This document shows positions 957 to 16,720 of a stretch of DNA of 23,294 nt, in pieces. Both the position numbers and the translations under genes were made by a program. The notes under the pieces were generated by a model that worked only from the letters and a program-made list of their open reading frames with translations, was not told the origin of the DNA and did no database searches. The stretch is from contig CATWBR010000013.1 of the NCBI GenBank assembly GCA_958349075.1, positions 1-23,294 of the forward strand, read 5' to 3'. The first letter of the stretch is position 1. Every line of letters starts with the position of its first letter. This stretch comes from an uncultured Clostridium sp. (lineage in GTDB: Bacteria > Bacillota > Clostridia > Lachnospirales > Lachnospiraceae).

Positions 957-2066
957 TTACAGCTTCAATCCTTTACTCACATTCACAACAAAATCCTGTA
1001 CATTGGTTACAATTCCCTTGGCCGACAGGCTGCCGCGATCGCCCAGCTTATTCACCGCGAATTCCGAGATGTCCACGGTATAGAAATAAACCTGCCGAAT
1101 CGTTCCGTCCGGCATCACGCGGAAGGACGGCGTCATGTTCCCCGTTGCAACGGAATGAAGTGTGGTCGCCATACAGATGACCGTAGTTGCCTTGCTGATG
1201 CATTTTCTCATGGCGTCCTGGCCCTCGTAGACATTGGCATGGACCTCGGGAAGCGGACCGTCGTCACGGATGGAGCCGACCAGTACAAAAGGAACCTCCT
1301 TCTTTACGCAGCTATAAATAATGCCGTTGTCAATCCCCTCTTTCTCAATAAAGGCCGGGATGGATCCGTGGTATTTTACCTTATTGATCGTATCAATGTG
1401 ATTGTAGTGGCCTCCCTGGTAGCTCTGCTGCGTATATATATCCTGCCCGAGAGCCGTTTTCAAATATGCTCCCTCCAGATCATGGGTTGCCAGGGCATTT
1501 CCGGCCAGCAGCGCATCTACGTAGCCGTTCATAACGAGTTTTGAGAACGCCGCCCTGGAATCGGCGTCAAACGCACAGGCCGGGCCCAGTACCCAGGCCA
1601 CATAGCCGTGTTCCTTCTCATATTCCAGCAGCTCATAGATATTGTCATAGTCCCTGGAAAAAGCAGTCTCCCTGGAACGGCTCTGGCGGAAGGCAAACGA
1701 TTCCTGGCTGTCCGCCCCGTCTGCTGCGTTCCCGGAGAACTCGCTGAAACCGTCCGGGTACACATAAATTCCGTCTTCTCCGTTTTCCGTCCTGCCCGTA
1801 AATACCATGTCGCCCTGTTTCAGGTTCCTGAATTCACGGACGAAAATTTTCCCGTTCTCATAGACCGCGACACAGTCCATGCGGCTCTCCTCAGCCAGCA
1901 GCCATCGGCCGCCTGTCTTAAAGTACTCCGGAAAAATTGTGGTTGCATGATATCCGTCCGGAGCAACTCTGTCAAACGGAGCAGGCTCAAGCTTTGCTTC
2001 CGGCGCCTCCGTAAACCGGGGCAGAGTAAAATCTGGGGCCTGATACGTTTTTAATTGAAATGACAT
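957..2066 (-). CDS. archaeal-type ornithine cyclodeaminase-like protein (TIGR00300 / LOR-SDH domain family)
   Basis: The 369-residue product carries the signature blocks of the archaeal ornithine cyclodeaminase family, which converts ornithine to proline and ammonia using NAD: GYVDALLAGNALATHDLEGA (182-200), PFVLVGSIRDDGPLPEV (259-275), EGQDAMRK (281-288), TLHSVATGNMTPS (302-314) and NKLGDRGS (339-346). This family also forms the C-terminal part of cyanobacterial AgrE/ArgZ and is unrelated to the mu-crystallin-like bacterial ornithine cyclodeaminase. I chose ATG 2066 because a GGGAGGAATT ribosome site sits 6-7 bases upstream; an in-frame extension to 2132 lacks one. The middle (about 100-150) is divergent from the usual archaeal pattern, so the exact substrate is uncertain. 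It is a single-gene unit, with its own 5' region and a shared terminator at 848-887. Confidence 0.78.
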   Translation of the reverse strand: MSFQLKTYQAPDFTLPRFTEAPEAKLEPAPFDRVAPDGYHATTIFPEYFKTGGRWLLAEESRMDCVAVYENGKIFVREFRNLKQGDMVFTGRTENGEDGIYVYPDGFSEFSGNAADGADSQESFAFRQSRSRETAFSRDYDNIYELLEYEKEHGYVAWVLGPACAFDADSRAAFSKLVMNGYVDALLAGNALATHDLEGAYLKTALGQDIYTQQSYQGGHYNHIDTINKVKYHGSIPAFIEKEGIDNGIIYSCVKKEVPFVLVGSIRDDGPLPEVHANVYEGQDAMRKCISKATTVICMATTLHSVATGNMTPSFRVMPDGTIRQVYFYTVDISEFAVNKLGDRGSLSAKGIVTNVQDFVVNVSKGLKL

Positions 2067-2113
2067 GATAAATTCCTCCCTGTATTTGTTTTCGGTTACA
2101 CCATTTGATACGG

Positions 2114-2145
2114 CATCTGTCCGGTGTTTCATTTGTCCGGTGTTA
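2114..2145 (-). repeat. tandem 16-bp repeat in the leader of the cyclodeaminase-like gene
   Basis: CATCTGTCCGGTGTTT (2114-2129) is followed immediately by CATTTGTCCGGTGTTA (2130-2145), 14 of 16 positions identical. On the coding strand of the downstream gene it reads as two AACACCGGACA words 16 bases apart. It lies about 50-80 bases before the start codon, where a regulator site or a leader structure could be; a simple duplication is equally possible. Confidence 0.6.
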
Positions 2146-2483: not shown

Positions 2484-2531
2484 AAAAAAGTCTGCCGGTT
2501 TTCTCTTTTAAAGGGGAGTGAAAACCGGCAG
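2484..2531 (-). terminator. terminator of the six-gene catabolic operon
   Basis: CTGCCGGTTTT (2492-2502) pairs perfectly with AAAACCGGCAG (2521-2531), an 11-bp stem. On the minus strand it is followed by CTTTTTTATTT, a good U-run. It lies about 55 bases after the stop of the CoA-transferase gene and separates the operon from the cyclodeaminase-like gene. Confidence 0.88.
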
Positions 2532-2585: not shown

Positions 2586-3881
2586 TTAAATCAGCCCCAG
2601 TTCTTTTGCCTGGAATGTAAGTTCTTCTCTGAATTTCGGGTGTGAAACCCGGATCAGTTCCCTGGCCCGTTCTGCGACGGTCTTTCCGGCCAGAACGGCC
2701 GCGCCGTACTCGGTAACCACATATTCCACCATGGTACGCGTCAGGGACACCGGAGTTCCCGGGGCAAAAAATGGAACGATCTTGGAATATTTACCGTTTT
2801 TTGTAATGGACTCGACCACCACGATGGATTTCCCATCAGGGCAAAGCGCTGCACCCGTTGAAAAATCGGCAATTCCGCCCATGCCGGAATACTGCTTTCC
2901 CTTCAGATATTCCGAGTTGGCCTGTCCCAGGAGATCGACCTGAACGGCATTGTTGATTGCCGTCATCCTCCTGTTCTGCGCAATCAGGCCCGGATTTAAT
3001 ACATTCTGGCAACTGTTCATGTTTATTCCCGGATTGTGGCCGGCAAAATCAAACAGTTCCCTGGAACCCACGAGCTGGGCGCAAACGGAAACTCCCGGGT
3101 GAAGCGTCTTCTTTCTGTTGGTGACGATTCCCCTTTTGGTCAGTTCCATCAGCAGATCTCCGTAAATTTCTGTGTGGACTCCCAGATCTCTTTTAGGATC
3201 CATATACATCATAGCAGAAGAATTCAGGCGTCCCAGCCCTACTTCTATCGTGGCCTCATCCTCCACAAGCTCCGACAGGGCGTTACCAATTGCCCTGTAA
3301 ACCTCGCGGCTTTCCTCAGCGTCGTCAATCTCCCGGATGTTGAGGGGATACCCGTCTCCCTCCACAATATAGTCAAACTCGGAAATATGCTTTACATTCG
3401 CCCCGAGTACAAACGGAAGTTCCGGGTTGATTTCGGCGATAACCAGTTCCGCCTGGGTAGCAATGACCGGCATTCCGTCCGCTGCATTTCCCATGGACAC
3501 GTAGCCGTTTTCATCAGGTCTTGATACACAGGGCATTGCTATCCGGCATTTCAATGCGTTCATTGCCAGTTTGCCGTATCCTGAAAAACCGCAGGGGATG
3601 AATTCCGCAAAACCATTCTCAATATATTCCCGGTTCATGCCGTCCATGAAACTGAGGAAAACCCTCACCTCATCTCCCAGCCCCTCCAGTTCTCCCAGAA
3701 AGTTTGTCTGGGAACAGAAATACGTCACATTCTTTAAGTCTTTTCTCTTTCCCAGTTCCCTGAGGATTGTCTTCGGCTCCCTTGTCACAGCGCAGAAGCT
3801 GTCCCCGCTCCTCACCATGGCCGCCGCCTGAGCCGCTGTTATCAGTTTTTCATTATATTGGTCTTTCCATGTCTGACACAT
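2586..3881 (-). CDS. acetyl-CoA hydrolase/transferase family, 4-hydroxybutyrate CoA-transferase-like
   Basis: The 431-residue protein matches the length and layout of the AbfT/butyrate CoA-transferase group. Conserved blocks are IEVGLGRLNSSAM (212-224), HTEIYGDLLMEL (236-247), NNAVQVDLLGQANSE, YSGMGGIADFSTGA, KIVPFFAPG, and VEYVVTEYGAAVLAGKT near the end. Glu238 in the HTE motif aligns with the catalytic glutamate that forms the glutamyl-CoA intermediate in Clostridium aminobutyricum AbfT. The enzyme would move CoA from acetyl-CoA or another acyl-CoA onto a carboxylate made by this operon. The GGQ block found in many relatives is GGI here. ATG 3881 has a TGGAGA ribosome site about 8 bases upstream, and it follows the crotonase gene by 21 bases. 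It is the last gene before the terminator. The exact acid substrate cannot be read from sequence. Confidence 0.85.
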   Translation of the reverse strand: MCQTWKDQYNEKLITAAQAAAMVRSGDSFCAVTREPKTILRELGKRKDLKNVTYFCSQTNFLGELEGLGDEVRVFLSFMDGMNREYIENGFAEFIPCGFSGYGKLAMNALKCRIAMPCVSRPDENGYVSMGNAADGMPVIATQAELVIAEINPELPFVLGANVKHISEFDYIVEGDGYPLNIREIDDAEESREVYRAIGNALSELVEDEATIEVGLGRLNSSAMMYMDPKRDLGVHTEIYGDLLMELTKRGIVTNRKKTLHPGVSVCAQLVGSRELFDFAGHNPGINMNSCQNVLNPGLIAQNRRMTAINNAVQVDLLGQANSEYLKGKQYSGMGGIADFSTGAALCPDGKSIVVVESITKNGKYSKIVPFFAPGTPVSLTRTMVEYVVTEYGAAVLAGKTVAERARELIRVSHPKFREELTFQAKELGLI

Positions 3882-3902
3882 TTTCGTTCTCCATTGTCCT
3901 TT

Positions 3903-4712
3903 TTATGAGCGGTTATTTTTCCATTCCAGCGCCGCTTTAAGTCCCTGGCTGTTCACAATCTCGTTGAATTCTTTCTGCGTCTGGGCCTGGTTGATGCGGC
4001 ACAGGCTGAAAATCTCTGCTGCAAAATCCATGGCGTTGACCATGCCCTGAATCTCATACGTCTTGTTGACCTGGTATTTTAACATGGTCATCGTATCGGA
4101 AGGCATTCCGGCAAGTCGCTCGGCAACTTTCATGGTCTCCTCTTCCAGTTTCTCAAACGGCACCACCTTATTTACAACGCCGCATTCACGGAGCTCTTCC
4201 GCGGTCAGATATTCGCCAAGATATAAAAGCTGTCTCGCTTTATTCATCGGGAGTTTCCACGGCTCAATCAGGATGTCCGGAACATAGGAAAATGCCACTT
4301 CCGGCTCTCCGAACCTGGCGTCCTCGGATGCAATCACCAGATCGCACATGAAAGCAAGGTGAAGTCCGCCGCCGATACAGAATCCCTGTACGGATGCTAT
4401 TACGGGCTTTTTACAGTTCCAGACTTCCCGCCAGGTATTTAATTCCATTGCCGTGTTTTCTCTTCTTGGAATCACGTCTACAATCGGCTCTCCAATACTT
4501 TCCTTAATGTCAAAACCCGCGCTGAATGCCTTATCCCCCACCGCACTGATAACAATTACGTTGGTCTCCGGATCCTGATCCGCCATTTTAATAAATTCTC
4601 CCAGGTTCTCCACCAGTTCCTGGTTGAATGCATTTCTCGCTTTTGGGCGGTTGATTATAACTCTTCCAATTTTCCCCTGTTTCTCATATAAAAGTACGTC
4701 TGTCTGGCTCAT
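3903..4712 (-). CDS. enoyl-CoA hydratase/isomerase (crotonase) family protein
   Basis: The 269-residue protein has the crotonase fold signatures: the oxyanion-hole segments AFSAGFDIKE (62-71) and VQGFCIGGGLHLAFMCDLVIAS (108-129), then ARFGEPEVAFSYVPD (132-146). In classical enoyl-CoA hydratase two glutamates act as acid/base; the second is kept (Glu138) but the first is replaced by His118, in GGGLHLA instead of GGxELA. The usual PGxGGTQRL that follows is also absent, with ILIEPWKLP in its place. So it acts on a CoA thioester but is probably not a plain crotonyl-CoA hydratase; another hydratase/lyase, isomerase or decarboxylase role is possible. ATG 4712 has a GGGAGGAAAC ribosome site. It sits between the nitroreductase and CoA-transferase genes. 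Confidence 0.86.
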   Translation of the reverse strand: MSQTDVLLYEKQGKIGRVIINRPKARNAFNQELVENLGEFIKMADQDPETNVIVISAVGDKAFSAGFDIKESIGEPIVDVIPRRENTAMELNTWREVWNCKKPVIASVQGFCIGGGLHLAFMCDLVIASEDARFGEPEVAFSYVPDILIEPWKLPMNKARQLLYLGEYLTAEELRECGVVNKVVPFEKLEEETMKVAERLAGMPSDTMTMLKYQVNKTYEIQGMVNAMDFAAEIFSLCRINQAQTQKEFNEIVNSQGLKAALEWKNNRS

Positions 4713-4775
4713 AATATCTGTTTCCTCCCGCTATTTTTCAGCTTTTATTTTTCTATTTCTGTATTTCAGTTTTTT

Positions 4776-4809
4776 CTTTCCGCTTCTATCTTTCCGCTTC
4801 TATCTTTCC
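4776..4809 (-). repeat. 14-bp tandem repeat in a purine-rich inter-cistron leader
   Basis: CTTTCCGCTTCTAT occurs twice head to tail (4776-4789 and 4790-4803) and begins a third time at 4804. On the mRNA of the minus-strand operon this is an almost pure purine tract between the nitroreductase and crotonase genes. The 108-base gap is the longest inside the operon. No promoter boxes or hairpin were found in it. Confidence 0.6.
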
Positions 4810-4820
4810 ACCCCTGTCTC

Positions 4821-5345
4821 TCAGTTTATGTCCTTCCCACAGTTCCACCGCCCCATATGGACACGGCTCTCATCCCATCTGTCTTTTGCCGTCTTCTTAA
4901 ATTCCGGATAGCCAAAGGACATCAGGCAGAGAATCTCTATCTCATCCGGGATGCCGAATTCCGGCCTTATGGTTTTTATTCTCTCCTCATTTGGATAAAC
5001 GCCCAGCCACACGGCTCCCACTCCCAGGTGTTCCGCCTCCAGAAGCATGTTTTCGGCGGCTGCCGAGCAGTCCTGAATCCAGAAGTCGAACCTGTATTTC
5101 TGGAGTGACGGGTCTGCGCACAGAATCACCGCAAATGCGGCTTCCGGAAGCATGGAGGCGTGAGGATGAAGCTCTGAGAGCCTGACTAAATCCTCCCTAT
5201 CCTCCACTACCAGAAAGTGCCATGGCTGCTCATTACCGGCCGACGGCGCGCACATCCCGGCACGCAGGATTTTTTCTATCTTCTCGCGCTCTACCGGCCT
5301 GTTCTGATATTTTCTTGTACTTCTCCGCTCGAATATTTCTTTCAT
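4821..5345 (-). CDS. nitroreductase-family flavoprotein
   Basis: This 174-residue protein has the FMN-binding layout of the nitroreductase superfamily: ERRSTRKYQNRPV (6-18) at the N-terminus, MCAPSAGNEQPWHFLVVED (31-49), and DCSAAAENMLLEAEHLGVGAVWLGVYP in the second half, where the flavin phosphate and dimer contacts lie. Such proteins are FMN dimers using NAD(P)H, but many have non-nitro physiological substrates such as enoates or dehydrogenation steps. The length is normal for the small clostridial group and no extra ferredoxin domain is present. ATG 5345 follows an AGGAAGGG ribosome site and lies only 12 bases after the PLP enzyme gene, showing co-transcription. In this operon it may supply a redox step between the deaminated product and the CoA ester, which is inference. 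Confidence 0.86.
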   Translation of the reverse strand: MKEIFERRSTRKYQNRPVEREKIEKILRAGMCAPSAGNEQPWHFLVVEDREDLVRLSELHPHASMLPEAAFAVILCADPSLQKYRFDFWIQDCSAAAENMLLEAEHLGVGAVWLGVYPNEERIKTIRPEFGIPDEIEILCLMSFGYPEFKKTAKDRWDESRVHMGRWNCGKDIN

Positions 5346-5357
5346 GGCATACCCTTC

Positions 5358-6407
5358 CTAACTTGGGCCGCACTGTGCAAACAGTGAGGCAAATCCGCCC
5401 GTATGGATATAAATCACAGGCAGACCGCTCTCCCCTTTTCCAGATTCCGTGACAGCACCCACCACCGTTTTGCTGCAATAAATATTTTCAATATAGATTC
5501 CTGTAAGATGAGGAAAACGTTTTACCATCCGGCTGCTCTCCTCCGTATTGCTGCCCCAGCCATCCCCGGCGTAGAGGTCCGTAACCTCACAAAGCGATTC
5601 AAACTCGCACCCGATCGGGCCGGCATACTGTTCCGTTTCCGCAATCAGCTTCTTTATCCGGTTCTCTAATGTCTCTTTACTGTGCTCCACACTGATGACC
5701 GTGATCTCAAACGGCATATTTTCGAGATAATTCCCGCATATCAGGCCTGCCGCTATGCCTCCGTTGCCTCCCGGCACAAAGATGCGGCCCAGTTTTTTCC
5801 GGCCCTCCGCTCCCGTCGTTTCTGTCGCTGTTTCAGTCGTAGGTCCGGCCGTCGTTTCAGCCGCCGTACCATCCTCTTTTTCCAGCTCCTCTTTTATTTC
5901 CCGGAGCATGTCGATATAACCGAGGACTCCCAGCCCGGTGGAAGCGCCGTTTTCTATCAGGAACGGTTTTTTCCCCTCCGCCCTGTATCCGTCACAGAGC
6001 AGCGCCGCTTTTTCATTCCGTTCTATACCGCTGCAGGATCCCAGGAAAACTTCACGCACATCCAGTATTTTATTCAATATCATGTTTCCTCTTCTATCCT
6101 CCGGAAGAAATGAATTATAGACGAGGGTGCAGTCCAAGGACAGAGCCGCGCAAGCCGCCGCCACAGTTGTGCACAGGTTGGATTCATACGGCCCGGACGC
6201 AATGACGGTGTCACATCCTTCGGATACCGCTTCCTCCAGCAGATACTCCATACACCGCACCTTATTGCCTCCCGGCCCCAGCCCGCTCAAGTCTTCTCTT
6301 TTAATGTAAAACGGCACGGGCAGCGAAAATTCTTTTTCTATTCTTTTCATTCTCTGGAGAGGGGTGGGATAACACCCCAGCTCCAGTTTCTTGTGGTATA
6401 ATTTCAT
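5358..6407 (-). CDS. PLP-dependent D-cysteine desulfhydrase / ACC deaminase-like enzyme (copy 1)
   Basis: The 349-residue protein belongs to the fold-type II PLP family with D-cysteine desulfhydrase and 1-aminocyclopropane-1-carboxylate deaminase. The N-terminal FYIKREDLSGLGPGGNKVR (33-51) includes the Schiff-base Lys49. Family enzymes normally have a QSNH block; here it is SGPYESNLCT (71-80). The glycine loop expected to hold the PLP phosphate is VPGGNGGIAAG (211-221). Members release ammonia from an amino acid and give a 2-oxo acid, but these changes make the substrate uncertain. Residues about 178-204 form a Thr/Glu/Ala-rich low-complexity insert absent from the second copy at 13187-14170, with which it otherwise aligns end to end. 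ATG 6407 has GAGCGGAGGAAAG directly upstream and lies 28 bases after the symporter gene. Confidence 0.84.
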   Translation of the reverse strand: MKLYHKKLELGCYPTPLQRMKRIEKEFSLPVPFYIKREDLSGLGPGGNKVRCMEYLLEEAVSEGCDTVIASGPYESNLCTTVAAACAALSLDCTLVYNSFLPEDRRGNMILNKILDVREVFLGSCSGIERNEKAALLCDGYRAEGKKPFLIENGASTGLGVLGYIDMLREIKEELEKEDGTAAETTAGPTTETATETTGAEGRKKLGRIFVPGGNGGIAAGLICGNYLENMPFEITVISVEHSKETLENRIKKLIAETEQYAGPIGCEFESLCEVTDLYAGDGWGSNTEESSRMVKRFPHLTGIYIENIYCSKTVVGAVTESGKGESGLPVIYIHTGGFASLFAQCGPS

Positions 6408-6435
6408 CTTTCCTCCGCTCAGTTGATTGGAAGCA

Positions 6436-7812
6436 TTAATGGGAAGCTTCCTTCGGCTGCGTCATAAGACTCACTGCCACATAGGCAATCAGAGACGGCA
6501 GAATCGGGAAAATGGATGATACCGGAAGATGTACGCCGCAGTATTTATACAGGACTACAAAAAGCATACCTGTTATCGAGCTGGCGATTGCCCCTGCCTT
6601 GGTTGCCTTCTTCCAGAAGATTCCTCCGATAAACATGACCAGCGTTCCGGCGCACATGAAGGTGTAGGCCGCGGAAAGCATGGAGATGATTGTTTTAGCC
6701 CCGAGCGCCAGATAAAGCACGATAAGGCCGATTAAGAATGTGGCGATGTGAGCGATCTGGTTTAACTTCTTCTCGCTTGCATTTTTATCAAAATATGCCT
6801 TGTAAATATCATTTGTAAAGGAACCCGTCACGTAAATAAGCTGGGAGTCAACCGTTGACATAACCGCTGCCATCAGGGCTGCAATCATGAGGGCTGCCAC
6901 GAGCGGCGGGAATGCTTCAATCAGTACATGGAACAGAATCGTTCCCGGCGCCGCGTCGGGATATAATGCAATGCCGTACATACCGATCATTACCGGAAGC
7001 ACTACATAAGGAAGCAGGATCATTGCGCCCCAGAATGCGGAATGGAAGGCTGTTTTTTCATCTTTACAGGACATATTTCTCTGGAAAGACGCACTGGAAA
7101 TCAGGCCGTACAGCATGGATGGGAACAGCATCATAACCCAGGTGTCGAGTTCGAAAGGAATCAGTTCGTAGAACGAGCTCGGAAGGACCTCTTTCATCAG
7201 CCCCAGTCCGCCCTGTGACAGCATGCAGCCGAATGCAATTAAGGTACATAAGAAAATCACGCCTACCTGAATCATATCCGTCATCAGGACTCCCCACTGT
7301 CCCGACATTGTGGAATAAATAAATACGATGATACATACCGCAGCGGCGCCCAAAGTTGCGTTCATGCCAAAATAGGAAAACAGGTTTCTTCCTGCAATAA
7401 TCTGTCCCGCCATGATGCTCATGGCCGCCAGCGCATTGACAACCGCAAAAATGGTACCGGTAATCCTTGCCCCATACCGTTTATTCAGGATATCCGACAT
7501 CGTGAGCTGTTCCGTGCGGTAAAGCCTCTTTGACAGAATAAAGGCAAAGAGAACGTATCCCAGAGCGGAACCCACGCCGTACCAGATGCCTCCGATTCCG
7601 TATATGGCGCCGTACTCCGCGCCTCCCACCACGATACCGTTTCCGATATGGGAACCGATATAGGAACCGCATACCATCAGGAATGTTCCCTGTTTTGCCG
7701 CCGTCAGGTAATCCTCAAATGAGTTGGCATATTTTTTACCGTAGAAACCGACTGCCAGCATTCCCCCAAGATACAAGACCATAACAACAACGATAAGCTG
7801 TAAAATATTCAT
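6436..7812 (-). CDS. sodium:solute symporter (SSS family)
   Basis: The 458-residue product is an integral membrane protein with about 12-13 hydrophobic segments, typical in length for the SSS family (PutP/PanF/acetate-type permeases). The segment ALMAAVMSTVDSQLIYVTG near residues 316-335 corresponds to the Na2-site helix (the STxDS pattern), and the N-terminal GSYIGSHIGNGIVVGGAEYGAIYG fits the unwound first core helix. It should import an organic acid, amino acid or similar solute with Na+. I chose ATG 7812 because GGAGGAAGGG lies just upstream; a longer TTG-started frame to 7839 would place the ribosome site inside the gene. It sits between the enolase-superfamily and PLP enzyme genes, so it probably imports the substrate of this operon. 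Confidence 0.9.
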   Translation of the reverse strand: MNILQLIVVVMVLYLGGMLAVGFYGKKYANSFEDYLTAAKQGTFLMVCGSYIGSHIGNGIVVGGAEYGAIYGIGGIWYGVGSALGYVLFAFILSKRLYRTEQLTMSDILNKRYGARITGTIFAVVNALAAMSIMAGQIIAGRNLFSYFGMNATLGAAAVCIIVFIYSTMSGQWGVLMTDMIQVGVIFLCTLIAFGCMLSQGGLGLMKEVLPSSFYELIPFELDTWVMMLFPSMLYGLISSASFQRNMSCKDEKTAFHSAFWGAMILLPYVVLPVMIGMYGIALYPDAAPGTILFHVLIEAFPPLVAALMIAALMAAVMSTVDSQLIYVTGSFTNDIYKAYFDKNASEKKLNQIAHIATFLIGLIVLYLALGAKTIISMLSAAYTFMCAGTLVMFIGGIFWKKATKAGAIASSITGMLFVVLYKYCGVHLPVSSIFPILPSLIAYVAVSLMTQPKEASH

Positions 7813-7854
7813 ACCCTTCCTCCTGTTCTTTCTCGACAAACGTTACTAAATGTT

Positions 7855-9003
7855 TTAATTGAAAATGCTGTATTTTTTCACAAGTTCCTCATCGATTTCA
7901 ATTCCAAATCCCGGTTTCTGCGGAAGCGGGATGCAGCCGTCTTCCTCCACGAAATAGTTTTCCTTCAGGATTCCCTGGAAAGCCCCCGGCGTCAGTGTCG
8001 GCGGATCGTATGGGTATTCGAGCCATGTGAAGTTAGGAATCGAGGCTACCATATGCATACTCTGTAAAACACCGGTTCCCGGTATGTATGCGTGCGGATT
8101 CACCGTTTTTCCGTAGGAATCGGCAATCGCGGCAATCTTTCGGATATAGCTGATGCCGGTGCTCATCGTGCAGTTGGGCTGCAGTATCTCATAGCACCCC
8201 TTATCCAGCATTATCTTGAAGTCCGGAATTCCGATATTGATTTCCCCTCCCGCAATCGGAATGTCCACTTCTTCATTCAGCCTGGCAAGGCCGTCGAAAT
8301 TGTACCGCCACAGCGGCTCTTCCAGCCAGGCGCAGCCGAGTTTCTCCATCTCCCTCGCCGTGTCCCTGGCCCTCTCATAGCTCCACACATAGGGATAACC
8401 GTTATTGTTGCGCTCACAGGCGGTGCCCTGGTTGGCGTCCACCATGATTTCCAGCTTATCGCCGACTGCCTCCCGTACCGCTTCCACTATTGCAATATCT
8501 TCTCTGACCGTCTTATGGGTGAAACGGACCTTGACGGCTTTAAAACCTTCCTCCACAAGGCGTTTTGCATCTTCTTTTCTCTGCTCATTGGAACGGATCT
8601 CTCCCCAGGCCGCATAGACCGGAACTCTGTCCCGGCAGGCTCCAAAGAGCTTATATACCGGCAGTCCCGCAGCTTTTCCGATAATATCCCAGCAGGCATT
8701 TTCAATCACCCACGGTCTGGTGGCCACTCTGGCCACATTGCGGAGCTTGAACATAATTTTTTCAATATCAAACGGCGAGTCACCGACTACCATTTCTTTG
8801 GCATAATCCATCGTATCGCATACCAGTTTCAGTATGCCGTGGGGCGCCTCCATGCAGGCATAGCCGGTAATCCCCTCATCCGTGTGGACACGAACCACAA
8901 AAATCACCTGGCCGCTCTCCGTTTTTCCCGGATACCATGTTGGATGGAATTCCTCGGGAAAAGGTACGTTTACGCAGTCATAGGTAATGTCCGTTATCTT
9001 CAT
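7855..9003 (-). CDS. mandelate racemase/muconate lactonizing (enolase superfamily) enzyme
   Basis: This 382-residue protein has the capping domain (about 1-125) and a TIM barrel with enolase-superfamily catalytic positions. These are Lys158-Val-Arg160 after strand 2, metal ligands Asp189, Glu228 and Glu254 (MVDANQG, LEEPLW, AGGEIN), and His304 in NPHAYIPG plus Glu329 in LEYPYDPP, as in the mandelate racemase subgroup. It would abstract a proton alpha to a carboxylate, so it may be an acid-sugar or hydroxy-acid dehydratase or a racemase/epimerase. The His usually pairs with an Asp in QPD; here the position is Asn277 (LQPNCTM). It is the first gene of the operon: ATG 9003 has GGAGGAAGAG directly before it. 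The divergent LysR gene lies 273 bases away. Specific function is not assignable by sequence alone. Confidence 0.88.
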   Translation of the reverse strand: MKITDITYDCVNVPFPEEFHPTWYPGKTESGQVIFVVRVHTDEGITGYACMEAPHGILKLVCDTMDYAKEMVVGDSPFDIEKIMFKLRNVARVATRPWVIENACWDIIGKAAGLPVYKLFGACRDRVPVYAAWGEIRSNEQRKEDAKRLVEEGFKAVKVRFTHKTVREDIAIVEAVREAVGDKLEIMVDANQGTACERNNNGYPYVWSYERARDTAREMEKLGCAWLEEPLWRYNFDGLARLNEEVDIPIAGGEINIGIPDFKIMLDKGCYEILQPNCTMSTGISYIRKIAAIADSYGKTVNPHAYIPGTGVLQSMHMVASIPNFTWLEYPYDPPTLTPGAFQGILKENYFVEEDGCIPLPQKPGFGIEIDEELVKKYSIFN

Positions 9004-9193: not shown

Positions 9194-9223
9194 TTACACA
9201 GTTACAACTTTCTGTTGTATAAT
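9194..9223 (+). promoter_or_regulatory. candidate lysR promoter with overlapping inverted repeat
   Basis: A perfect -10 box TATAAT at 9218-9223 has TTACAC 18 bases upstream (9194-9199). An inverted repeat TACAAC-N5-GTTGTA (9203-9208 and 9214-9219) overlaps the -10 box. Its dyad form resembles LysR-type binding sites, so it is a candidate for autoregulation and for control of the divergent operon. Confidence 0.5.
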
Positions 9224-9276: not shown

Positions 9277-10173
9277 ATGAATATAAGACAGTTGGAATAT
9301 TTTGTAAAAGTTTATGAATGCGGCAGTTTCTTTAAGGCGGCTGAATCTCTTTTCATCTCCCAGCAGGCCCTCAGCCGGGCACTGGCCACCCTGGAACAGG
9401 AGCTGAACGCCCAGCTCTTTTACCGGAACCACAAGGGCGTCACCCCCACTCCCCTCGGGCGCGAACTGTACATATCCTGTCAGGCCGCGCTCCGGGAGAT
9501 GAGGGTGCTGGAAAAACATATGAATGAATTTGTCCGCCAGAATTACGGCTATCTGAAGATTGGTCTGGGCGCCGGATGCCGTTATTTTATTTCCAAAACC
9601 ATGTGGAAGGATTTCTTCAAGGACTATCCCCATGTCTCCTATGACGTCGAGGAATACACCTATAAACACAGTATTGAGCTTTTAAATAATAAGGAACTGG
9701 ATATTCTGATTATATCGGACTACACGCCCGGAAAAGAGTATTACCAGAATGAACTTAAGACGCAGGACCGCGTGCTTCTGCTGCCGAAGGAGCATCCTGC
9801 CTTTGAAAATGAGGATGTGAAACTGGAGGATTTGCGTGATGAATCGTTCGTGCTTTCCATTAACGATTTGGCTTACCACAGTTTTCTGGAATTCTGCACC
9901 GATCATGACTGTCTTCCAAAAGAAGTCCTTCGGGTCAGCGATACCCTGTATATGTACGAGACATGCAGCCGGGACCGCTGTGCCGGAATCACAATCAAAG
10001 GATATTTTACGGATGTCTTTCTTCCAAAATTCCCGGATCTCGATATCATTCCTTTCAAACGGAATCTTTTTCCCTATACCATCACCCTGATGGCGCGGAA
10101 AAACCACCCGAACCTGGCGCTGATCATGTCGCTGGCCTCCTACCTGAAAGAATATCTGAGCGATAAGTCATAA
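9277..10173 (+). CDS. LysR-family transcriptional regulator
   Basis: The 298-residue protein has the standard LysR layout: a winged helix-turn-helix at residues 1-60 (MNIRQLEYFVKVYECGSFFKAAE, SQQALSRALATLEQEL), a linker helix, and a two-lobed periplasmic-binding-like effector domain from about residue 90. I chose ATG 9277, with AAAGGA upstream, over an in-frame TTG at 9256 because LysR proteins start right at the MNIRQLEYF helix. It is divergent from the six-gene catabolic operon, and LysR regulators classically control the adjacent divergent operon, usually activating it when bound to a pathway intermediate. The inducer is unknown. It is followed by its own strong terminator. Confidence 0.92.
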   Translation: MNIRQLEYFVKVYECGSFFKAAESLFISQQALSRALATLEQELNAQLFYRNHKGVTPTPLGRELYISCQAALREMRVLEKHMNEFVRQNYGYLKIGLGAGCRYFISKTMWKDFFKDYPHVSYDVEEYTYKHSIELLNNKELDILIISDYTPGKEYYQNELKTQDRVLLLPKEHPAFENEDVKLEDLRDESFVLSINDLAYHSFLEFCTDHDCLPKEVLRVSDTLYMYETCSRDRCAGITIKGYFTDVFLPKFPDLDIIPFKRNLFPYTITLMARKNHPNLALIMSLASYLKEYLSDKS

Positions 10174-11674: not shown

Positions 11675-13147
11675 TTATGATGCCTGTTTATGCTGTTCCA
11701 TCTCCTCCGCCGTTCTCAAACGCACATCCGGCTCGCTTGGAATCTTAAAGCCCGGGAAGAACCGATCCAGGCTGGTAATGGTGAGAATCAGCATGGATGC
11801 AACGGATATCATGCTCAGATAGTTTGCGGAGATAATCTTCATCGGCGTAAATGCATACAGCGGATAAACCGCCGTAGCGAGGCCCGTAAAGAAAATCATG
11901 TAGCCATGCCATGGTATAAGCTGGGAGCCAATGGTTCCGAAGGCGTCGGAGTAGGTTGAATTGCGCAGACGCAGCTTATACATCTGCTCCGGCGTTGCCT
12001 CGACCGCATTGTCCGTCATATTTTTAATAATCGGCCCCATGGTTACAATCTGGCCCGTACAATCGCCCAGCACCGCATTACAGAGCAGGGAAAGCAGGGC
12101 GTTGCACATCATGAGCTGACGCACGCTGTGGGCAATTTTTAAAACTCCTTTAATAATCGGATCAAACGCATTCATGCCTCCCATGATTCCGCCGAATGCC
12201 GCGGTCCATAAAGTCATGCTGACCGACCAGGAACCGGCGTCTGAAAAACCGGTGTAAACAAGATCGGCAAAGGATGAAAGAGTGAGCGTATTGGCAAACA
12301 GGCCGCATATAAGGGCCAGACCGATCCCGGAACCGAGGCAGATGACCGTTCCGATGCCTTTAACAGCCATAATGATAACGGCCGCAAGGGGAAGCAGCAG
12401 GCAAAGGGGTACTCCGCTGCGTACCTGTTCCAGCAGAGTTACCGCGGATGGGCGTTCCGCCATCAGTGTCTCCCATACTTCTTTCGGGATTGCATCGATC
12501 GCCTCATTTGCATTGCCTACCGCTCCTCCCAGACCCATGGCCTGAGAAACGATAAAGAATACTGCAGCACTGACCACCAGACAGGAGACGGACCATGCGC
12601 CCTGATGGCGCACGCGGTCGGTTACTTCAACCTCATGCACTCCGGAGGAAAGCACGGTTGTATCCGAGATCAGGCCGATATTATCTCCAAAACAGCAGCC
12701 TCCCGCAATAGCGGCAACCGTCAGAAGAGGGGAACCGCCTACAATATGGGATAACCACAGAAATACCGGCACACAGGCTGCAAACGTTCCCCATGAAGTG
12801 CCTGTGGCAATTGAAAGCAGGGAGGTGACAATCAGGGATGCGCTTGCAACCGTGACGCCGGTCAGTCCAATCTTCATTGCAACAATAATAATAGATGCTC
12901 CAACGCCGCTGGCCATAAATACTTCGGCCATGGCAAAGGAAATCATTAGGATAAAAAGAATATCAATCAGATTTTTTGCATTTTCAATCGCAGATTTATA
13001 AATCTGCTTGTATGACTGTTTATCGAGAACAAATGCCAGAATCCCCGCCAGTACCGTTGCGGTGGGGGCTGCCAGAAGAATATCCACGCCATTCAGCAGA
13101 AGACCGGCCAGTACCACAACCGGAAACAGTTTTATTATCGCTTTCAT
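11675..13147 (-). CDS. NhaC-family Na+/H+ antiporter-like transporter
   Basis: The 490-residue membrane protein has about 12 hydrophobic helices and the NhaC family motifs: TGTSWGTFAACVPVF (about 113-127), GGCCFGDNIGLISDTTVLSSG (about 149-169), and a conserved late segment IIKNMTDNAVEATPEQMYKLR. The Asp residues in the FGDN and SDTT motifs are those implicated in cation transport. NhaC-family members include Na+/H+ exchangers and malate/lactate or amino-acid exchangers. Being in one unit with a PLP deaminase-like gene, it may exchange the amino-acid substrate or product rather than serve only pH control; this is inference. ATG 13147 has an AGGATGAG ribosome site and lies 39 bases after the PLP gene. 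Confidence 0.86.
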   Translation of the reverse strand: MKAIIKLFPVVVLAGLLLNGVDILLAAPTATVLAGILAFVLDKQSYKQIYKSAIENAKNLIDILFILMISFAMAEVFMASGVGASIIIVAMKIGLTGVTVASASLIVTSLLSIATGTSWGTFAACVPVFLWLSHIVGGSPLLTVAAIAGGCCFGDNIGLISDTTVLSSGVHEVEVTDRVRHQGAWSVSCLVVSAAVFFIVSQAMGLGGAVGNANEAIDAIPKEVWETLMAERPSAVTLLEQVRSGVPLCLLLPLAAVIIMAVKGIGTVICLGSGIGLALICGLFANTLTLSSFADLVYTGFSDAGSWSVSMTLWTAAFGGIMGGMNAFDPIIKGVLKIAHSVRQLMMCNALLSLLCNAVLGDCTGQIVTMGPIIKNMTDNAVEATPEQMYKLRLRNSTYSDAFGTIGSQLIPWHGYMIFFTGLATAVYPLYAFTPMKIISANYLSMISVASMLILTITSLDRFFPGFKIPSEPDVRLRTAEEMEQHKQAS

Positions 13148-13186
13148 AAGAACTCATCCTTTCTTGAACAATATCGGTTTTCACGT

Positions 13187-14170
13187 TTAGAACTGGGCAA
13201 ACAGCGACCCCAGCCCGCCTGTATGCAGATAACATACCGGACCGGATACTTTCCCCCGTTCTATGTAATCCTGCATTCCAACTAAAACCTTACTGTTATA
13301 TACATTCTCAATTAAGATACCTTCCATTTTGGGAAAATCCAGGACAGCCCGGCCGCTCTGCGGGGTATTCATTCCCCAGCCGCCTCCCCGGTAGCTGTCG
13401 TCGATGATACAGGCCTCCTCCAGACCGTATCCGAACGGGATCCCCAGAATCTCCTCCAATTCCGAAATAATTTTACTGATATGGGCACTTAACCTTTCCT
13501 TCCCATCCTCCACACTGATAATAACTATGTTAAATGGAAATCCGCAGAGGGCATTGCCGTAGATCAGGCCGGATGCAACTCCCCCATTCCCGCCGGGAGC
13601 AAATATTGTGCCTTTTTGAAGGGATTTTTCCCGGAACTGGCGCTCCATCTCAATGACGGCGTTCGTATAACCCAGCGCACCGGTCCCTGTGGTAGCGCCG
13701 TTACGGATGATATACGGGCTGCACTCCGTGGAAATATGTCCGGCAAGCTCCTCCACAAATGCAGTCCGCTCTCCCTCCGTGGCTTCCCCTATAAAGTGGG
13801 ATTCGGCCCCAAGCAGGCGGTTGAGCAGAAGATTTCCCGTAAGGTGTTCCGGTTCGTCTCCGTTATGCACCACAATGCACTTCAGCCCCAGCTTTGCACA
13901 GGCCGCCGCCGTCAACGTGCAGAGATTGGACTGGACCGGACCGGATGCAATCAAGGTGTCCTTTCCTGCGGCAATTGCCTCCCCCGCTATAAATTCCAGA
14001 CTTCGAAGTTTATTCCCCCCTGGCCCCAGGCCGGTTAAATCATCTCGTTTAATAAAAATGCCGGTATAATCCATCCGCCGTTCCAAATTTTCAAGTGGTT
14101 CCAGAGGGGTCGGCAGGGTGGCAAGGCGTGCGCGTCCGACTCTGCTGAGTTCTGATTCTAAAGAGTTCAT
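13187..14170 (-). CDS. PLP-dependent D-cysteine desulfhydrase / ACC deaminase-like enzyme (copy 2)
   Basis: The 327-residue fold-type II PLP enzyme is a clear paralogue of the product at 5358-6407. Lys54 in FIKRDDLTGLGPGGNKLR should bind PLP. The substrate-carboxylate block is SGPVQSNLCTLTAAACA (76-92), keeping QSN but with Leu-Cys-Thr where family enzymes have His-x-Arg. The phosphate loop is APGGNGGVASG (191-201). Shared later blocks are GGGWGMNTPQSGR and the C-terminal YLHTGGLGSLFAQF. It probably removes ammonia from an amino acid to leave a 2-oxo acid; alternatives are desulfhydration or racemisation. It lacks the Thr/Glu-rich insert of copy 1. ATG 14170 follows GAGAGGAGAGGAAAG. It is the first gene after the sigma-54 promoter and is followed by the NhaC-like transporter. 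Confidence 0.85.
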   Translation of the reverse strand: MNSLESELSRVGRARLATLPTPLEPLENLERRMDYTGIFIKRDDLTGLGPGGNKLRSLEFIAGEAIAAGKDTLIASGPVQSNLCTLTAAACAKLGLKCIVVHNGDEPEHLTGNLLLNRLLGAESHFIGEATEGERTAFVEELAGHISTECSPYIIRNGATTGTGALGYTNAVIEMERQFREKSLQKGTIFAPGGNGGVASGLIYGNALCGFPFNIVIISVEDGKERLSAHISKIISELEEILGIPFGYGLEEACIIDDSYRGGGWGMNTPQSGRAVLDFPKMEGILIENVYNSKVLVGMQDYIERGKVSGPVCYLHTGGLGSLFAQF

Positions 14171-14220
14171 CTTTCCTCTCCTCTCTCTTTCTTTGTTTTG
14201 ACATGTCGAAACTATTATAT

Positions 14221-14236
14221 AGCAAGAAGCGTGCCA
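14221..14236 (-). promoter_or_regulatory. sigma-54 (-24/-12) promoter for the PLP enzyme-NhaC unit
   Basis: On the minus strand the sequence reads TGGCACGCTTCTTGCT, matching the sigma-54 consensus TGGCAC-N5-TTGCT at every fixed position, with the required GG-N10-GC spacing. Transcription would start near 14209, about 38 bases before the start codon of the PLP enzyme. A sigma-54 activator is encoded immediately upstream. Confidence 0.9.
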
Positions 14237-14466
14237 ATTTTTGTAGTCTTGTAATTGACATAAGACATCCTCCGTTTCAGGCGGACCGTTTCAATACTTC
14301 ACACGGGTGGAATAAAACGGATTTGTTGCCTCGTATCCCCGCATTATCAAAGAAAAAACCGTCTGTTTCCTTCCGGAGAGAATTCCTCCATAAAGCAAAA
14401 TTGTACCGGATAAAATTCTAAAATAATCTTAGGGCCTGTTTTAAATGATGCTGTAACCAATGGTGC
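14237..14466. promoter_or_regulatory. likely upstream activator region of the sigma-54 promoter
   Basis: This stretch lies between the -24 box and the terminator of the activator gene and holds no coding sequence I can support. It contains CCGTTTCA twice, 14 bases apart (14272-14279 and 14286-14293), and a near-palindrome GGAGAGAATTCCTCC (14375-14389) about 140 bases above the promoter, a usual distance for enhancer sites. Neither is proven; both are candidates only. Confidence 0.35.
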
Positions 14467-14523
14467 AAAAAGAAAGTGGCTGAAAAACCGGTTTTTCAAA
14501 GACCAGTTTTTCAGCCACTTTCT
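14467..14523 (-). terminator. terminator of the sigma-54 activator gene
   Basis: AGAAAGTGGCTGAAAAAC (14471-14488) pairs perfectly with GTTTTTCAGCCACTTTCT (14506-14523). After one mismatch, GGT/ACC extends the stem. On the minus strand the stem ends in TTTCTTTTT, giving a U-run. It lies 26 bases after the activator stop codon and insulates the sigma-54 promoter downstream. Confidence 0.9.
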
Positions 14524-14548
14524 CACAATTATCTTTCATAACTATTTT

Positions 14549-16612
14549 CTATAACGATTGAAGTAAATCCCGCAGCTTATCATTTGCCCGCTGCCCCAAA
14601 ACCGTAAGTTCCGTTCCGCTTCTTCCCGTATGAATCCGTACAAGTCCGTATGACTGAAGCGTCTTCAGATACATCCGCACTTCCTGTTCACCGATGGAAA
14701 TCCCCTTTGCCTCCAGGCTGCGGCTGATTCCCTGCCTTCCCTGTTTTACCCCTGCCTGCTTGTTGTAATACAAAAGTGACAGTATGGAGGCGTGCCCTTC
14801 AAGACGCGGACGCTCCTGGATAAGGAAGTGTTCAAGCAGGGGATCTTCCTTCGGCTCCTCCGCCTCTTCCGGCCGGCTGTCCAGTTGGGATTTGGCGTCC
14901 TCCAGAGTGATAATTTCTTTTCCCAGATAGGAAAGCCGTTCAACAAAGTTCCCCAGCTCCCGCACATTTCCATGCCACGGATATGTGGTCAGGTACTCAA
15001 CCGCATCCTCTGAAAGGGTAAATTCTGCACCCATCCGGGAACGGAAATCCTCTATCAGCAGCGCTATGTCTTCTCTCCTCTCCTGCAGCGGCGGTATTTC
15101 AACGGAGAGGACATTCAGCCGGTAATACAGATCCTCCCGGAACTTGTCCTGCCTCACCAAATCCAGCAGACGTTTGTTGCTGGCGGATATGATTCGGACA
15201 TCAATACTGATGACATTGTCTCCCCCGACCCGGATTACTTCCTTTTCCTGCAGGACACGCAGAATCCGGGCCTGAAGCGCCAGATCCATCTCACCAATCT
15301 CATCCAGAAACAGCGTTCCTTTGTGGGCAAGCTCAAAGTATCCCGCCTTGCCGCCCTTTTTAGCCCCGGTAAACGCTCCCTCACTGTAGCCGAAAAGCTC
15401 ACTCTCCAGCAGACTCTCGGGGATGGAGGCACAGTTGATGGCAATAAAGGGATAATCCTTCCTCGAGGATGCATTGTGGATTGACTGGGCAAAAAGCTCT
15501 TTTCCGGTTCCGCTCTGCCCGTAAATCACAATCGAGGAGGAAGACCGGGCCATCCGCCCCACCGTATCTTTGAGCTGCTGCATCTTCGGGTTCTGTGTCC
15601 TTAAATCGGTAAAGTCATGTTTTGCCACATGCCCCTTAGAGATTAGCTGGCGGCGCACCTTATACTGGTTGAGTTCCACGTCCTTCAGGGTTTTTATCAT
15701 CAGGATGTATTCCCCTGCCGCGGAGGAACCGGTCAGCGGATAGATGGAAACGTCCATAAGCTGGTCCCGGACCGTCACCACCTGATCACGGATCGGCTCG
15801 GAAAGCTGTGTGATTTTAAGTTCGCTCAGTTCCGGAAGAAGCGTCTCCACCTGCTGCCCGATGGCCGACAGAGATTTTTTCCCCAGGAGATGCTCCGCAG
15901 AAGCGTTGACAAATGAAACCGTGCCGCTGCCCGTCAGAGTGATAATCCCCCCATCAAACACCTGCATGACGAGATCCAGCTTTCTCTCCTGCTCATGAAC
16001 CTGATCGAGTAACTGCTCAATTCCCAGATCCCCCTGGGCCAGGCTGCTGAAATACGCTTTCGCACAGTCGCTCTGCAGCATGGACGTAAGGTTCAGTTTT
16101 GCCGCCAGGTTCGCTATCGTGCGCATGGACAAAACCCTGTCGTGCAGATCCACAATATTCGTAACCCGGGGCGGAACCAATGCCTTTTCTCCGGGTGTGA
16201 TTGCCATTGTAAGAGGCGGTGTCACCTCGATTCCCGGATAAACCGGCAAAAGCTCGATATGGTTGATTCCCGAATTATGGATCATATTGATTGTTTCAAT
16301 GGCCATCTCCATTGTGGTGTTGACGAGCATCGCCTTCGTCCCCTCGGGAATGGAAAGGAGCCTGTTAATTGCGCTCTTTCTCAGTGTGATATCCGCAATA
16401 ATGACGTGTCTGCAGTCGCGCAGCCTCGACTCGATCAGGGTATATATGGCGTGTGTGGATATCAGGACCACATCGGCGGAAATGTTCCTGGGAAGATTCT
16501 CCTCCAGGGCATAAAGTTCCACGCGGACCGAACCGTCAAACAGGGCCAGAATCTGCTCCGCATAGATATTGGCCGTCCTCATTCCATGAGAAATAATCAC
16601 TACGGTTTTCAC
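14549..16612 (-). CDS. sigma-54-dependent transcriptional activator (PAS, AAA+, winged-helix C-terminus)
   Basis: The 687-residue protein has an N-terminal sensor-like domain (about 1-165; PrpR-N-like or related, not firmly identified), a PAS domain (about 210-310), and a sigma-54 AAA+ domain. The AAA+ domain has Walker A GQSGTGKE (365-372), the sigma-54-contacting GAFTGA loop (412-417), Walker B LFLDEIG (434-440) and the WHGNVREL block. The end (about 609-680: GISRSLEAKGISIGEQEVRM, LQSYGLVRIHTGRSG) looks like a winged helix, not the usual Fis-type helix-turn-helix. I chose the GTG at 16612 because AGGAGG lies 8 bases upstream; a longer ATG frame to 16720 would cover the promoter. It very likely activates the sigma-54 promoter at 14221-14236. 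Confidence 0.92.
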   Translation of the reverse strand: MKTVVIISHGMRTANIYAEQILALFDGSVRVELYALEENLPRNISADVVLISTHAIYTLIESRLRDCRHVIIADITLRKSAINRLLSIPEGTKAMLVNTTMEMAIETINMIHNSGINHIELLPVYPGIEVTPPLTMAITPGEKALVPPRVTNIVDLHDRVLSMRTIANLAAKLNLTSMLQSDCAKAYFSSLAQGDLGIEQLLDQVHEQERKLDLVMQVFDGGIITLTGSGTVSFVNASAEHLLGKKSLSAIGQQVETLLPELSELKITQLSEPIRDQVVTVRDQLMDVSIYPLTGSSAAGEYILMIKTLKDVELNQYKVRRQLISKGHVAKHDFTDLRTQNPKMQQLKDTVGRMARSSSSIVIYGQSGTGKELFAQSIHNASSRKDYPFIAINCASIPESLLESELFGYSEGAFTGAKKGGKAGYFELAHKGTLFLDEIGEMDLALQARILRVLQEKEVIRVGGDNVISIDVRIISASNKRLLDLVRQDKFREDLYYRLNVLSVEIPPLQERREDIALLIEDFRSRMGAEFTLSEDAVEYLTTYPWHGNVRELGNFVERLSYLGKEIITLEDAKSQLDSRPEEAEEPKEDPLLEHFLIQERPRLEGHASILSLLYYNKQAGVKQGRQGISRSLEAKGISIGEQEVRMYLKTLQSYGLVRIHTGRSGTELTVLGQRANDKLRDLLQSL

Positions 16613-16691
16613 TGTATCTTTCCTCCTGCTTTCCACTTCTGTAATACTTGATGCAGCTGTAAAAGTTTCGAATTGCCGTTGACATTTGTTT

Positions 16692-16720
16692 ATTTTATCA
16701 GTTATTGGGGGGTATTGCAA
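16692..16720 (-). promoter_or_regulatory. candidate sigma-A promoter of the activator gene
   Basis: On the minus strand TTGCAA (16720-16715) and TAAAAT (16697-16692) are separated by exactly 17 bases, a good vegetative promoter 80 bases before the GTG start. This also supports the shorter start codon, because the longer frame would begin inside the -35 box. Confidence 0.6.

What the first reader, a model, noticed from the sequence alone, without database searches (positions are those of the whole stretch)
2586..9003. Uncharacterised six-gene catabolic operon combining enolase-superfamily, PLP lyase, nitroreductase, crotonase and CoA-transferase enzymes
Six genes run in one direction with gaps of 42, 28, 12, 108 and 21 bases, end at a strong terminator, and are divergent from a LysR regulator. 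I know of no named pathway with this exact set. A plausible route is Na+-coupled import, proton abstraction or dehydration/epimerisation, PLP-driven deamination to a 2-oxo acid, CoA transfer, and conversion of an enoyl- or hydroxyacyl-CoA, with a flavin redox step. The order of steps and the substrate are inference.
Basis: partly seen in the sequence, partly recalled or inferred. Interest (0 to 1): 0.75.

Follow-up and report, generated by a model that had tools for sequence, protein, structure and literature searches.

The report
Unknown gut-bacterial acid-using gene cluster
A gut bacterium related to Clostridium symbiosum carries a switchable set of genes that probably imports a small organic acid, chemically rearranges it and ties it to coenzyme A; five of the six genes travel together in other bacteria, but the acid itself is still unknown.

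Summary
The six genes, their spacing, the divergent LysR gene and the terminator are real, but the conserved unit is five genes. All 4 of 4 loci with a close (84-98%) enolase-superfamily relative carry LysR<>MR-SSF-NTR-ECH-CoAT; only 1 of 4 has the PLP gene. PLP deamination is therefore not a core step. A palindrome, TACAAC-N5-GTTGTA, stands between LysR and the operon: exact in 2 of 5 sequences, one mismatch in 3 of 5. An exact second copy stands behind the operon in L003. SSF, crotonase and CoA-transferase recur without MR or NTR in three paralogous clusters. Two of these, and one five-gene locus, have Etf genes nearby (two also an acyl-CoA dehydrogenase) that resemble acryloyl-CoA reductase. 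In one genome the transporter and crotonase of a cluster with MR and one without are 97% and 96% identical. Best reading: a Na+-imported carboxylic acid is converted by the MR-family enzyme, probably by beta-elimination, and a flavin enzyme, to an acid processed by a CoA-transferase/crotonase cassette, possibly as an electron sink. The crotonase lacks one of the two hydratase glutamates. Substrate unknown. New variant of a known kind.

The parts
7855..9003 (-). MR: mandelate racemase/muconate lactonizing enzyme family protein, 382 aa (enolase superfamily)
6436..7812 (-). SSF: sodium:solute symporter, 458 aa from ATG 7812
   Evidence: Pfam SSF; AGGAGG ribosome-binding site before ATG; below cut-off for all 9 NCBIfam models listed
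5358..6407 (-). PLP1: PALP-fold enzyme of the D-cysteine desulfhydrase/ACC deaminase group, 349 aa; lineage-specific insertion between SSF and NTR
   Evidence: present in 1 of 4 relatives; 86% to L001 while the other five genes are 94-99%; Thr/Ala/Glu-rich insert that differs from L001
4821..5345 (-). NTR: small nitroreductase-family protein, 174 aa
   Evidence: Pfam Nitroreductase; nearest solved 3e10, putative NADH oxidase; in the module of 4 of 4 relatives, no match in the fetched stretches of the 3 paralogous cassettes
3903..4712 (-). ECH: crotonase-fold protein, 269 aa, lacking the first catalytic Glu of hydratases (H118) but keeping E138, and having D146 where rat hydratase has Gly
2586..3881 (-). 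CoAT: family I CoA-transferase of the 4-hydroxybutyrate / butyryl-CoA:acetate type, 431 aa
   Evidence: Pfam AcetylCoA_hyd_C and AcetylCoA_hydro; 3eh7 4-hydroxybutyrate CoA-transferase E 2.4e-87 with the HTE motif aligned
9277..10173 (+). LysR-family regulator, divergent, 298 aa
   Evidence: Pfam HTH_1 and LysR_substrate; a LysR gene is divergent in L001-L004 and in three paralogous cassettes
9203..9219 (.). Putative LysR operator: perfect palindrome TACAAC-N5-GTTGTA
   Evidence: only exact match in the window; in the same intergenic place exact in L001, one mismatch each in L002, L003, L004
9153..9181 (-). Putative operon promoter, TTTTCA-N17-TAAAAT with TG before the second hexamer
   Evidence: 9 of 12 matches; 11 such sites found in the region, 8.4 expected; the -10-like block is aligned in 5 of 5 sequences
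9195..9223 (+). Putative LysR promoter TACACA-N17-TATAAT, its -10 overlapping the operator
   Evidence: (10 of 12 matches), same caution about chance
2485..2531 (-). Intrinsic terminator ending the operon

Best explanation
A LysR-controlled operon for using a small carboxylic acid through coenzyme A. Shown by sequence: gene set, order, operator-like palindrome, terminator, and conservation of five of the six genes. Inferred: the SSF symporter takes up the acid with Na+. The MR-family enzyme abstracts the proton next to the carboxylate and expels a beta-oxygen (dehydration or lactone opening). The nitroreductase-family flavin enzyme adjusts the redox state, for example by reducing a C=C bond. 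The 4-hydroxybutyrate-type CoA-transferase puts CoA on the product, and the crotonase shifts a double bond or otherwise rearranges the acyl-CoA instead of doing ordinary hydration. Related cassettes have acryloyl-CoA-reductase-like genes beside them, so the acyl-CoA is probably reduced and the route may serve as an electron sink. MR and NTR act as an adaptor added to an SSF-ECH-CoAT cassette that also exists without them. PLP1 is an optional, recently inserted accessory, perhaps for an amino-substituted precursor.
For: Five-gene order kept in 4 of 4 loci with MR >=84%, in two bacterial families, and in none of the other 15 loci of the same search. 8 of 27 MR clusters of >=54% identity on contigs >=3 kb share the exact longest-contig length with a crotonase-family cluster (jittered control mean 0.08, maximum 2 in 2000 runs), including one pair named Synergistaceae. 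SSF+ECH+CoAT with a divergent LysR, without MR or NTR, in three paralogous clusters; two of these have EtfBA and one an acyl-CoA dehydrogenase, and ACAD-EtfBA lies beside L003's module. AcrC is the best NCBIfam match of both ACADs and AcrA of the one EtfA scanned; AcrB is second to a general EtfB model for both EtfBs; all below cut-off. SSF 97% and ECH 96% identical between the with-MR and without-MR clusters of one genome, CoAT 73%, LysR 54%. Operator conserved across families, with an exact second copy behind the operon in L003. MR: Asn replaces the Asp of 3bjs and 5olc in 25 of 30 rows, including all 21 of at least 54% identity. Crotonase: rat E144 is H118, E164 kept as E138.
Against: No substrate, product or expression data. 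ACAD/EtfB/EtfA of L003 have no match (1e-5) in the window, L001, L002 or L004 stretches, so the reductase link rests on L003 and on paralogous clusters; L004's contig is only 7 kb. The crotonase keeps the second hydratase Glu, so an unusual hydratase is not excluded. D146 is not strictly invariant (2 of 30 rows differ). The MR reaction type is inferred from residues; enolase-superfamily function is not predictable from fold. Only 5 module copies (window included) were seen with context. Contig-length matching shows presence on one contig, not adjacency, and 19 of the 27 MR clusters had no such match (the test sees only the longest contig of each cluster). The palindrome also occurs elsewhere: L051 12689-12703.
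Confidence: 0.5

Rival explanations
1. MR is a racemase/epimerase, not a lyase: it converts the unusable stereoisomer of an imported acid into the one that CoAT and ECH accept; NTR is a flavin helper.
For: In Pseudoflavonifractor the same transporter (97%) and crotonase (96%) occur in clusters with and without MR, so the MR substrate should closely resemble the cassette's own acid; a stereoisomer fits this. The fold matches include mandelate racemase.
Against: The Asp of the Asp-His pair seen in 3bjs/5olc is Asn here; the D270N mutant of mandelate racemase is, as I recall, nearly inactive for racemisation. No racemase or epimerase model listed reaches its NCBIfam cut-off. NTR stays unexplained.
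Confidence: 0.25
2. One reading: an amino or hydroxy acid is deaminated by the PLP enzyme to a 2-oxo acid, then CoA transfer and crotonase chemistry.
For: PLP1 lies in the operon here and in L001, 28 and 12 bases from its neighbours.
Against: Absent from the operon in 3 of 4 relatives; best PLP stretches in those genomes are partial, 44-49%; PLP1 is the least conserved gene of the operon against L001.
Confidence: 0.1
3. The substrate is a quaternary ammonium acid (betaine- or carnitine-like), by analogy with the cai operon.
For: Cassette logic (transporter, CoA-transferase, crotonase, acyl-CoA dehydrogenase, Etf) resembles cai/fix (recalled). One distant MR relative (38%, L012) lies by an MttB-family methyltransferase, an OpuB-like transporter (by eye) and a proline-racemase-family gene.
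Against: Transporter is SSF, not BCCT; CoAT has AcetylCoA_hydrolase/transferase domains, not CaiB type; crotonase far below the crotonobetainyl-CoA hydratase cut-off, 105.9 against 500 bits; MRs of 38-41% stand in very different contexts.
Confidence: 0.07
4. A loose neighbourhood of separately working genes kept by descent, not one pathway.
For: Within the C. symbiosum group the flanking genes are also largely syntenic.
Against: Same order in Oscillospiraceae with different flanks; short gaps, one terminator; patchy distribution: MR in 2 of 8 and 2 of 61 genomes of the two genera.
Confidence: 0.05

Closest known systems
Acrylate pathway reductase AcrCBA of Clostridium propionicum type (NF042972, NF042971, NF042970)
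   Same: ACAD and Etf genes beside L003's module and in paralogous cassettes match these models best or second best
   Different: all below the curated cut-offs; not found in the window; acrylate pathway has no MR or SSF (recalled)
Carnitine operon caiTABCDE with fixABCX (recalled)
   Same: transporter, CoA-transferase, crotonase and, in paralogues, acyl-CoA dehydrogenase and/or Etf
   Different: SSF not BCCT, a different CoA-transferase family, MR and NTR added, crotonase lacks the first Glu
Caffeate respiration carABCDE (recalled)
   Same: CoA-transferase plus ACAD/Etf enoyl-CoA reductase logic in a paralogous cassette
   Different: no crotonase, MR or SSF in car as I recall it; no CoA ligase here
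Mandelate racemase subgroup of the enolase superfamily (3ozm, 3bjs, 4hpn, 2ovl)
   Same: fold and metal ligands
   Different: K-x-R with Asn for Asp in the sixth-strand position; 27-28% identity to these four; partner genes
4-hydroxybutyrate CoA-transferase (3eh7) / butyryl-CoA:acetate CoA-transferase (TIGR03948)
   Same: near full-length homology, HTE motif
   Different: 217.5 bits against a cut-off of 674.8, so substrate not assigned

Membership tests
Mandelate racemase subgroup (enolase superfamily) | capping domain plus barrel and three acidic metal ligands | tested here: met
   Pfam MR_MLE_N/C; D189, E228/E229, E254 invariant in 30 of 30; fold
Mandelate racemase subgroup (enolase superfamily) | Lys-x-Lys on strand 2 and Asp-His pair on strands 6/7 for two-base racemisation (recalled) | tested here: not met
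   K158-x-R160 in 30 of 30; N277 with H304, Asn in 25 of 30 rows and Asp or Glu in 5 rows of 43-48%; 3bjs and 5olc have QPD there
Canonical enoyl-CoA hydratase | two catalytic Glu (rat E144 and E164; roles recalled) | tested here: not met
   H118 and E138 against 1dub; first place H in 20 and W in 10 of 30 rows, T in two paralogues
Crotonase superfamily | ECH fold with the glycine motif of the oxyanion hole | tested here: met
Family I CoA-transferase, 4-hydroxybutyrate type | catalytic Glu in HTE motif (recalled) | tested here: met
   aligned with 3eh7; kept in 7 of 7 sequences aligned
Butyryl-CoA:acetate CoA-transferase (TIGR03948) | score above curated cut-off | tested here: not met
   217.5 of 674.8 bits
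D-cysteine desulfhydrase / D-cysteate sulfo-lyase CuyA | score above curated cut-off | tested here: not met
   PLP1 172.9 of 450 bits for CuyA, 109.8 of 610 for PRK03910.1-1
cai carnitine system | CaiD-type crotonase, CaiB-type CoA-transferase, BCCT transporter (recalled) | tested here: not met
   105.9 of 500 bits for crotonobetainyl-CoA hydratase; AcetylCoA_hyd and SSF domains instead
Acryloyl-CoA reductase AcrCBA (neighbour genes in relatives) | score above curated cut-off | tested here: not met
   AcrC 469 and 390.9 of 640, AcrB 319.1 and 200 of 475, AcrA 377.6 of 600 bits
LysR-regulated divergent operon | palindromic site between the divergent genes | tested here: met
   window 9203-9219; exact in 2 of 5, one mismatch in 3 of 5 sequences
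LysR-regulated divergent operon | T-N11-A core centred in the palindrome (recalled) | tested here: not met
   the symmetric pair at that distance is C-N11-G; the palindrome's ends are T-N15-A (sequence)
LysR-regulated divergent operon | regulator binds and activates the operon | not testable with these tools
   needs footprinting or reporter assay

The most novel reading that the evidence does not exclude
An undescribed anaerobic pathway in which an enolase-superfamily enzyme works on the free acid and hands its product to a modular CoA-transferase/atypical-crotonase cassette that ends in enoyl-CoA reduction: a family of interchangeable 'acid respiration' cassettes in gut Clostridia and perhaps Synergistaceae, each with its own LysR sensor, where MR and NTR extend the range to an oxygenated or stereoisomeric precursor.
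Probability: 0.35. Interest if true: 0.6.

Novelty: new variant of a known kind. Interest (0 to 1): 0.45.

Why it matters
If right, it names a testable five-gene unit (plus regulator and operator) for an unknown dietary or host acid in C. symbiosum-group bacteria, and a set of paralogous cassettes whose comparison could tell what each takes. It also gives an atypical crotonase family and an MR-family branch without assigned activity.

Tried and rejected
Six-gene unit as such: rejected, PLP1 is absent from the operon in 3 of 4 relatives. Function by the MR relatives of 41% or less (15 loci, L005-L019): contexts differ (in the five that I read by eye: aspartase-like lyase, dehydrogenases, MFS, MttB), no transfer made. 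MR relatives L036 (47%) and L037 (37%): no module; xanthine-dehydrogenase-like and NhaC-like, or NhaC-like and enolase-like neighbours by my reading of the ORFs. Crotonase hits of G054 and G086 (36-37%): other clusters, no module; L050 has an MR of 31% near three crotonases, not followed. Dienoyl-CoA-isomerase reading of E138/D146: attractive, but D146 is not invariant and a PD motif occurs in other crotonases (recalled), so not claimed. T-N11-A core of LysR sites: not met. Plasmids: MR at most 36%, crotonase at most 38% in the rows listed. Viral contigs: nothing for MR, one 34% crotonase. Rfam: no match at gathering thresholds. Profile search of solved structures with alignment A1 at 1e-70: none. 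Sampling for further module copies: crotonase in 1 of 398 (phylum of G001), 3 of 300 (family of G003, two of them 36-37%), 1 of 275 (order of G003), 1 of 274 (class of G001), 2 of 8 (genus of G001), centre genomes included; MR in 3 of 300 (family of G003, two of them without the module) and 1 of 299 (family of G001). Papers: only search listings were seen, no paper was opened. P0030 and P0047 look like chimeric gene calls and were not used. In one search I left out partial or chimeric MR hits (such as P0030, P0033, P0034, P0037, P0040, P0043-P0047, P0062, P0065) and rows past P0100; all 101 crotonase rows were used.
Full report
What is there. On the minus strand six genes run 9003 to 2586 with gaps of 42 (from ATG 7812), 28, 12, 108 and 21 bases and end at a 12-pair terminator with a T-run. 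LysR is divergent at 9277. Pfam assigns MR_MLE, SSF, PALP, Nitroreductase, ECH and AcetylCoA_hyd domains. None of the NCBIfam models shown reaches its cut-off for any of the six (25 of 71 shown for the crotonase, the full lists for the other five).

Where it comes from. The closest MR proteins are in Clostridium transplantifaecale (98%, L001), C. symbiosum ATCC 14940 (93%, L002), Pseudoflavonifractor phocaeensis (85%, L003) and an uncultured Oscillospiraceae (84%, L004). Flanking genes largely match L001 and L002, so the window is from the C. symbiosum group. No whole genome is held for it.

Conserved unit. All 4 of these loci have LysR divergent from MR-SSF-NTR-ECH-CoAT; none of the other 15 loci has it. 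PLP1 lies between SSF and NTR in L001 only; the other three have about 140, 99 and 139 bases there, and the best PLP stretches in their genomes are partial and 44-49% identical. So the operon is a five-gene unit with an inserted PLP gene. PLP1 is also the least conserved against L001 (86% against 94-99%) and carries a low-complexity insert that differs between the two.

Breadth. Of 39 MR clusters of 41-53%, one matches. One pair is named Synergistaceae in both lists. In sampled genomes the unit is rare: MR in 2 of 8 genomes of G001's genus, 2 of 61 of G003's genus, 3 of 300 in G003's family (two of them distant and without the module) and 1 of 299 in G001's family; the crotonase, at the thresholds used, in 1 of 398, 3 of 300, 1 of 275 and 1 of 274, centre genomes included. 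The distribution is patchy.

Regulation. The LysR-MR gap holds the palindrome TACAACTTTCTGTTGTA at 9203-9219, the only exact match in the window; with up to two mismatches there are 2 matches where shuffles give 0.38. In the same place it is exact in L001 and has one mismatch each in L002, L003 and L004, although the LysR proteins are only 46-49% identical to those of L003 and L004. L003 holds a second, exact copy at 15627-15643, behind CoAT and before the next gene (15736, an EamA-like permease by eye), so that permease may belong to the regulon. The inner arms also occur once in L051 12689-12703, outside any module; 47 of 54 loci have no match. A promoter-like site for the operon (9181-9153) places the palindrome near -65 (my count), the usual LysR site as I recall; a promoter-like site for LysR overlaps it. 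The classical T-N11-A core is not there (the symmetric pair is C-N11-G). Promoter-like sites are near the number expected by chance; conservation is the better argument.

Paralogous cassettes. The L001 genome has two more clusters with LysR, a crotonase (45-47%), a CoA-transferase (61-64%) and an SSF symporter (51-53%): one with an acyl-CoA dehydrogenase and EtfBA (L047), one with EtfBA (L048). Pseudoflavonifractor has a further LysR<>SSF-ECH-CoAT (L049). None of the three fetched stretches has MR or NTR. L003 has ACAD-EtfB-EtfA on the other side of LysR; these have no match in the window, L001, L002 or L004 stretches. AcrC is the best NCBIfam match of both ACADs, AcrA of the one EtfA scanned, and AcrB the second best of both EtfBs, all below cut-off. 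Between L003 and L049 the symporter is 97%, the crotonase 96%, the CoA-transferase 73% and LysR 54% identical. Nearly the same importer and crotonase thus occur with and without MR and NTR, which I read as MR and NTR being an adaptor for a closely related or precursor compound.

Reading. Import of a carboxylic acid; MR chemistry at the alpha carbon of the free acid; a flavin step; CoA transfer; crotonase rearrangement; probably reduction by an acyl-CoA dehydrogenase/Etf encoded nearby or elsewhere. All of this chemistry is inference. The substrate is open: a beta-hydroxy acid, a lactone or a stereoisomer of the cassette's acid are all allowed. PLP deamination is not part of the conserved route.

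Literature. Seven searches of the open-licence PMC library listed no paper that by title or start of abstract deals with this gene set; no paper was opened.

Noticed in passing
window 957-2132 (-): Protein above cut-off (612 of 440 bits) for NF052526, putative nickel-pincer-nucleotide-dependent ornithine cyclodeaminase variant; syntenic in L001 and L002, with a 4HBT thioesterase gene between it and CoAT in L002 (15733-16212).
   Followed up: partly
window 11675-16720 (-): NhaC-family transporter, second PLP enzyme (42% to PLP1, nearest CuyA/XcbE models but below cut-off) and a PrpR-like sigma-54 activator (by eye) look like a second small amino-acid operon.
   Followed up: partly
L001 3743-7360: In L001 the second PLP gene and the PrpR-like gene are missing here, ORFs resembling BlaR1 and BlaI (by eye) stand there, and the NhaC gene seems to have lost its start: a variable spot.
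   Followed up: partly
L002 9349-10000: The LysR-MR gap of C. symbiosum ATCC 14940 is 652 bases and holds a duplicated stretch with the palindrome CCATGTTCCTTCAAGGAACATGG, not seen in the window's gap.
   Followed up: no
L003 15627-15643: A second exact copy of the operator-like palindrome stands behind CoAT and before an EamA-like permease gene: possible second promoter of the regulon.
   Followed up: partly
L003 and L049 (G003:C2): One genome holds near-identical symporter and crotonase genes in two clusters with different CoA-transferases and regulators.
   Followed up: yes
L012 3529-11926: A Syntrophomonadaceae MAG has an MR relative (38%) next to a corrinoid protein (by eye), an MttB-family methyltransferase, an OpuB-like transporter (by eye) and a proline-racemase-family gene: perhaps a betaine pathway.
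   Followed up: partly
window 5358-6407, residues about 178-203 of PLP1: Thr/Ala/Glu-rich insert in the PLP1 protein, different in sequence and length in L001 and absent from the second PLP protein.
   Followed up: partly
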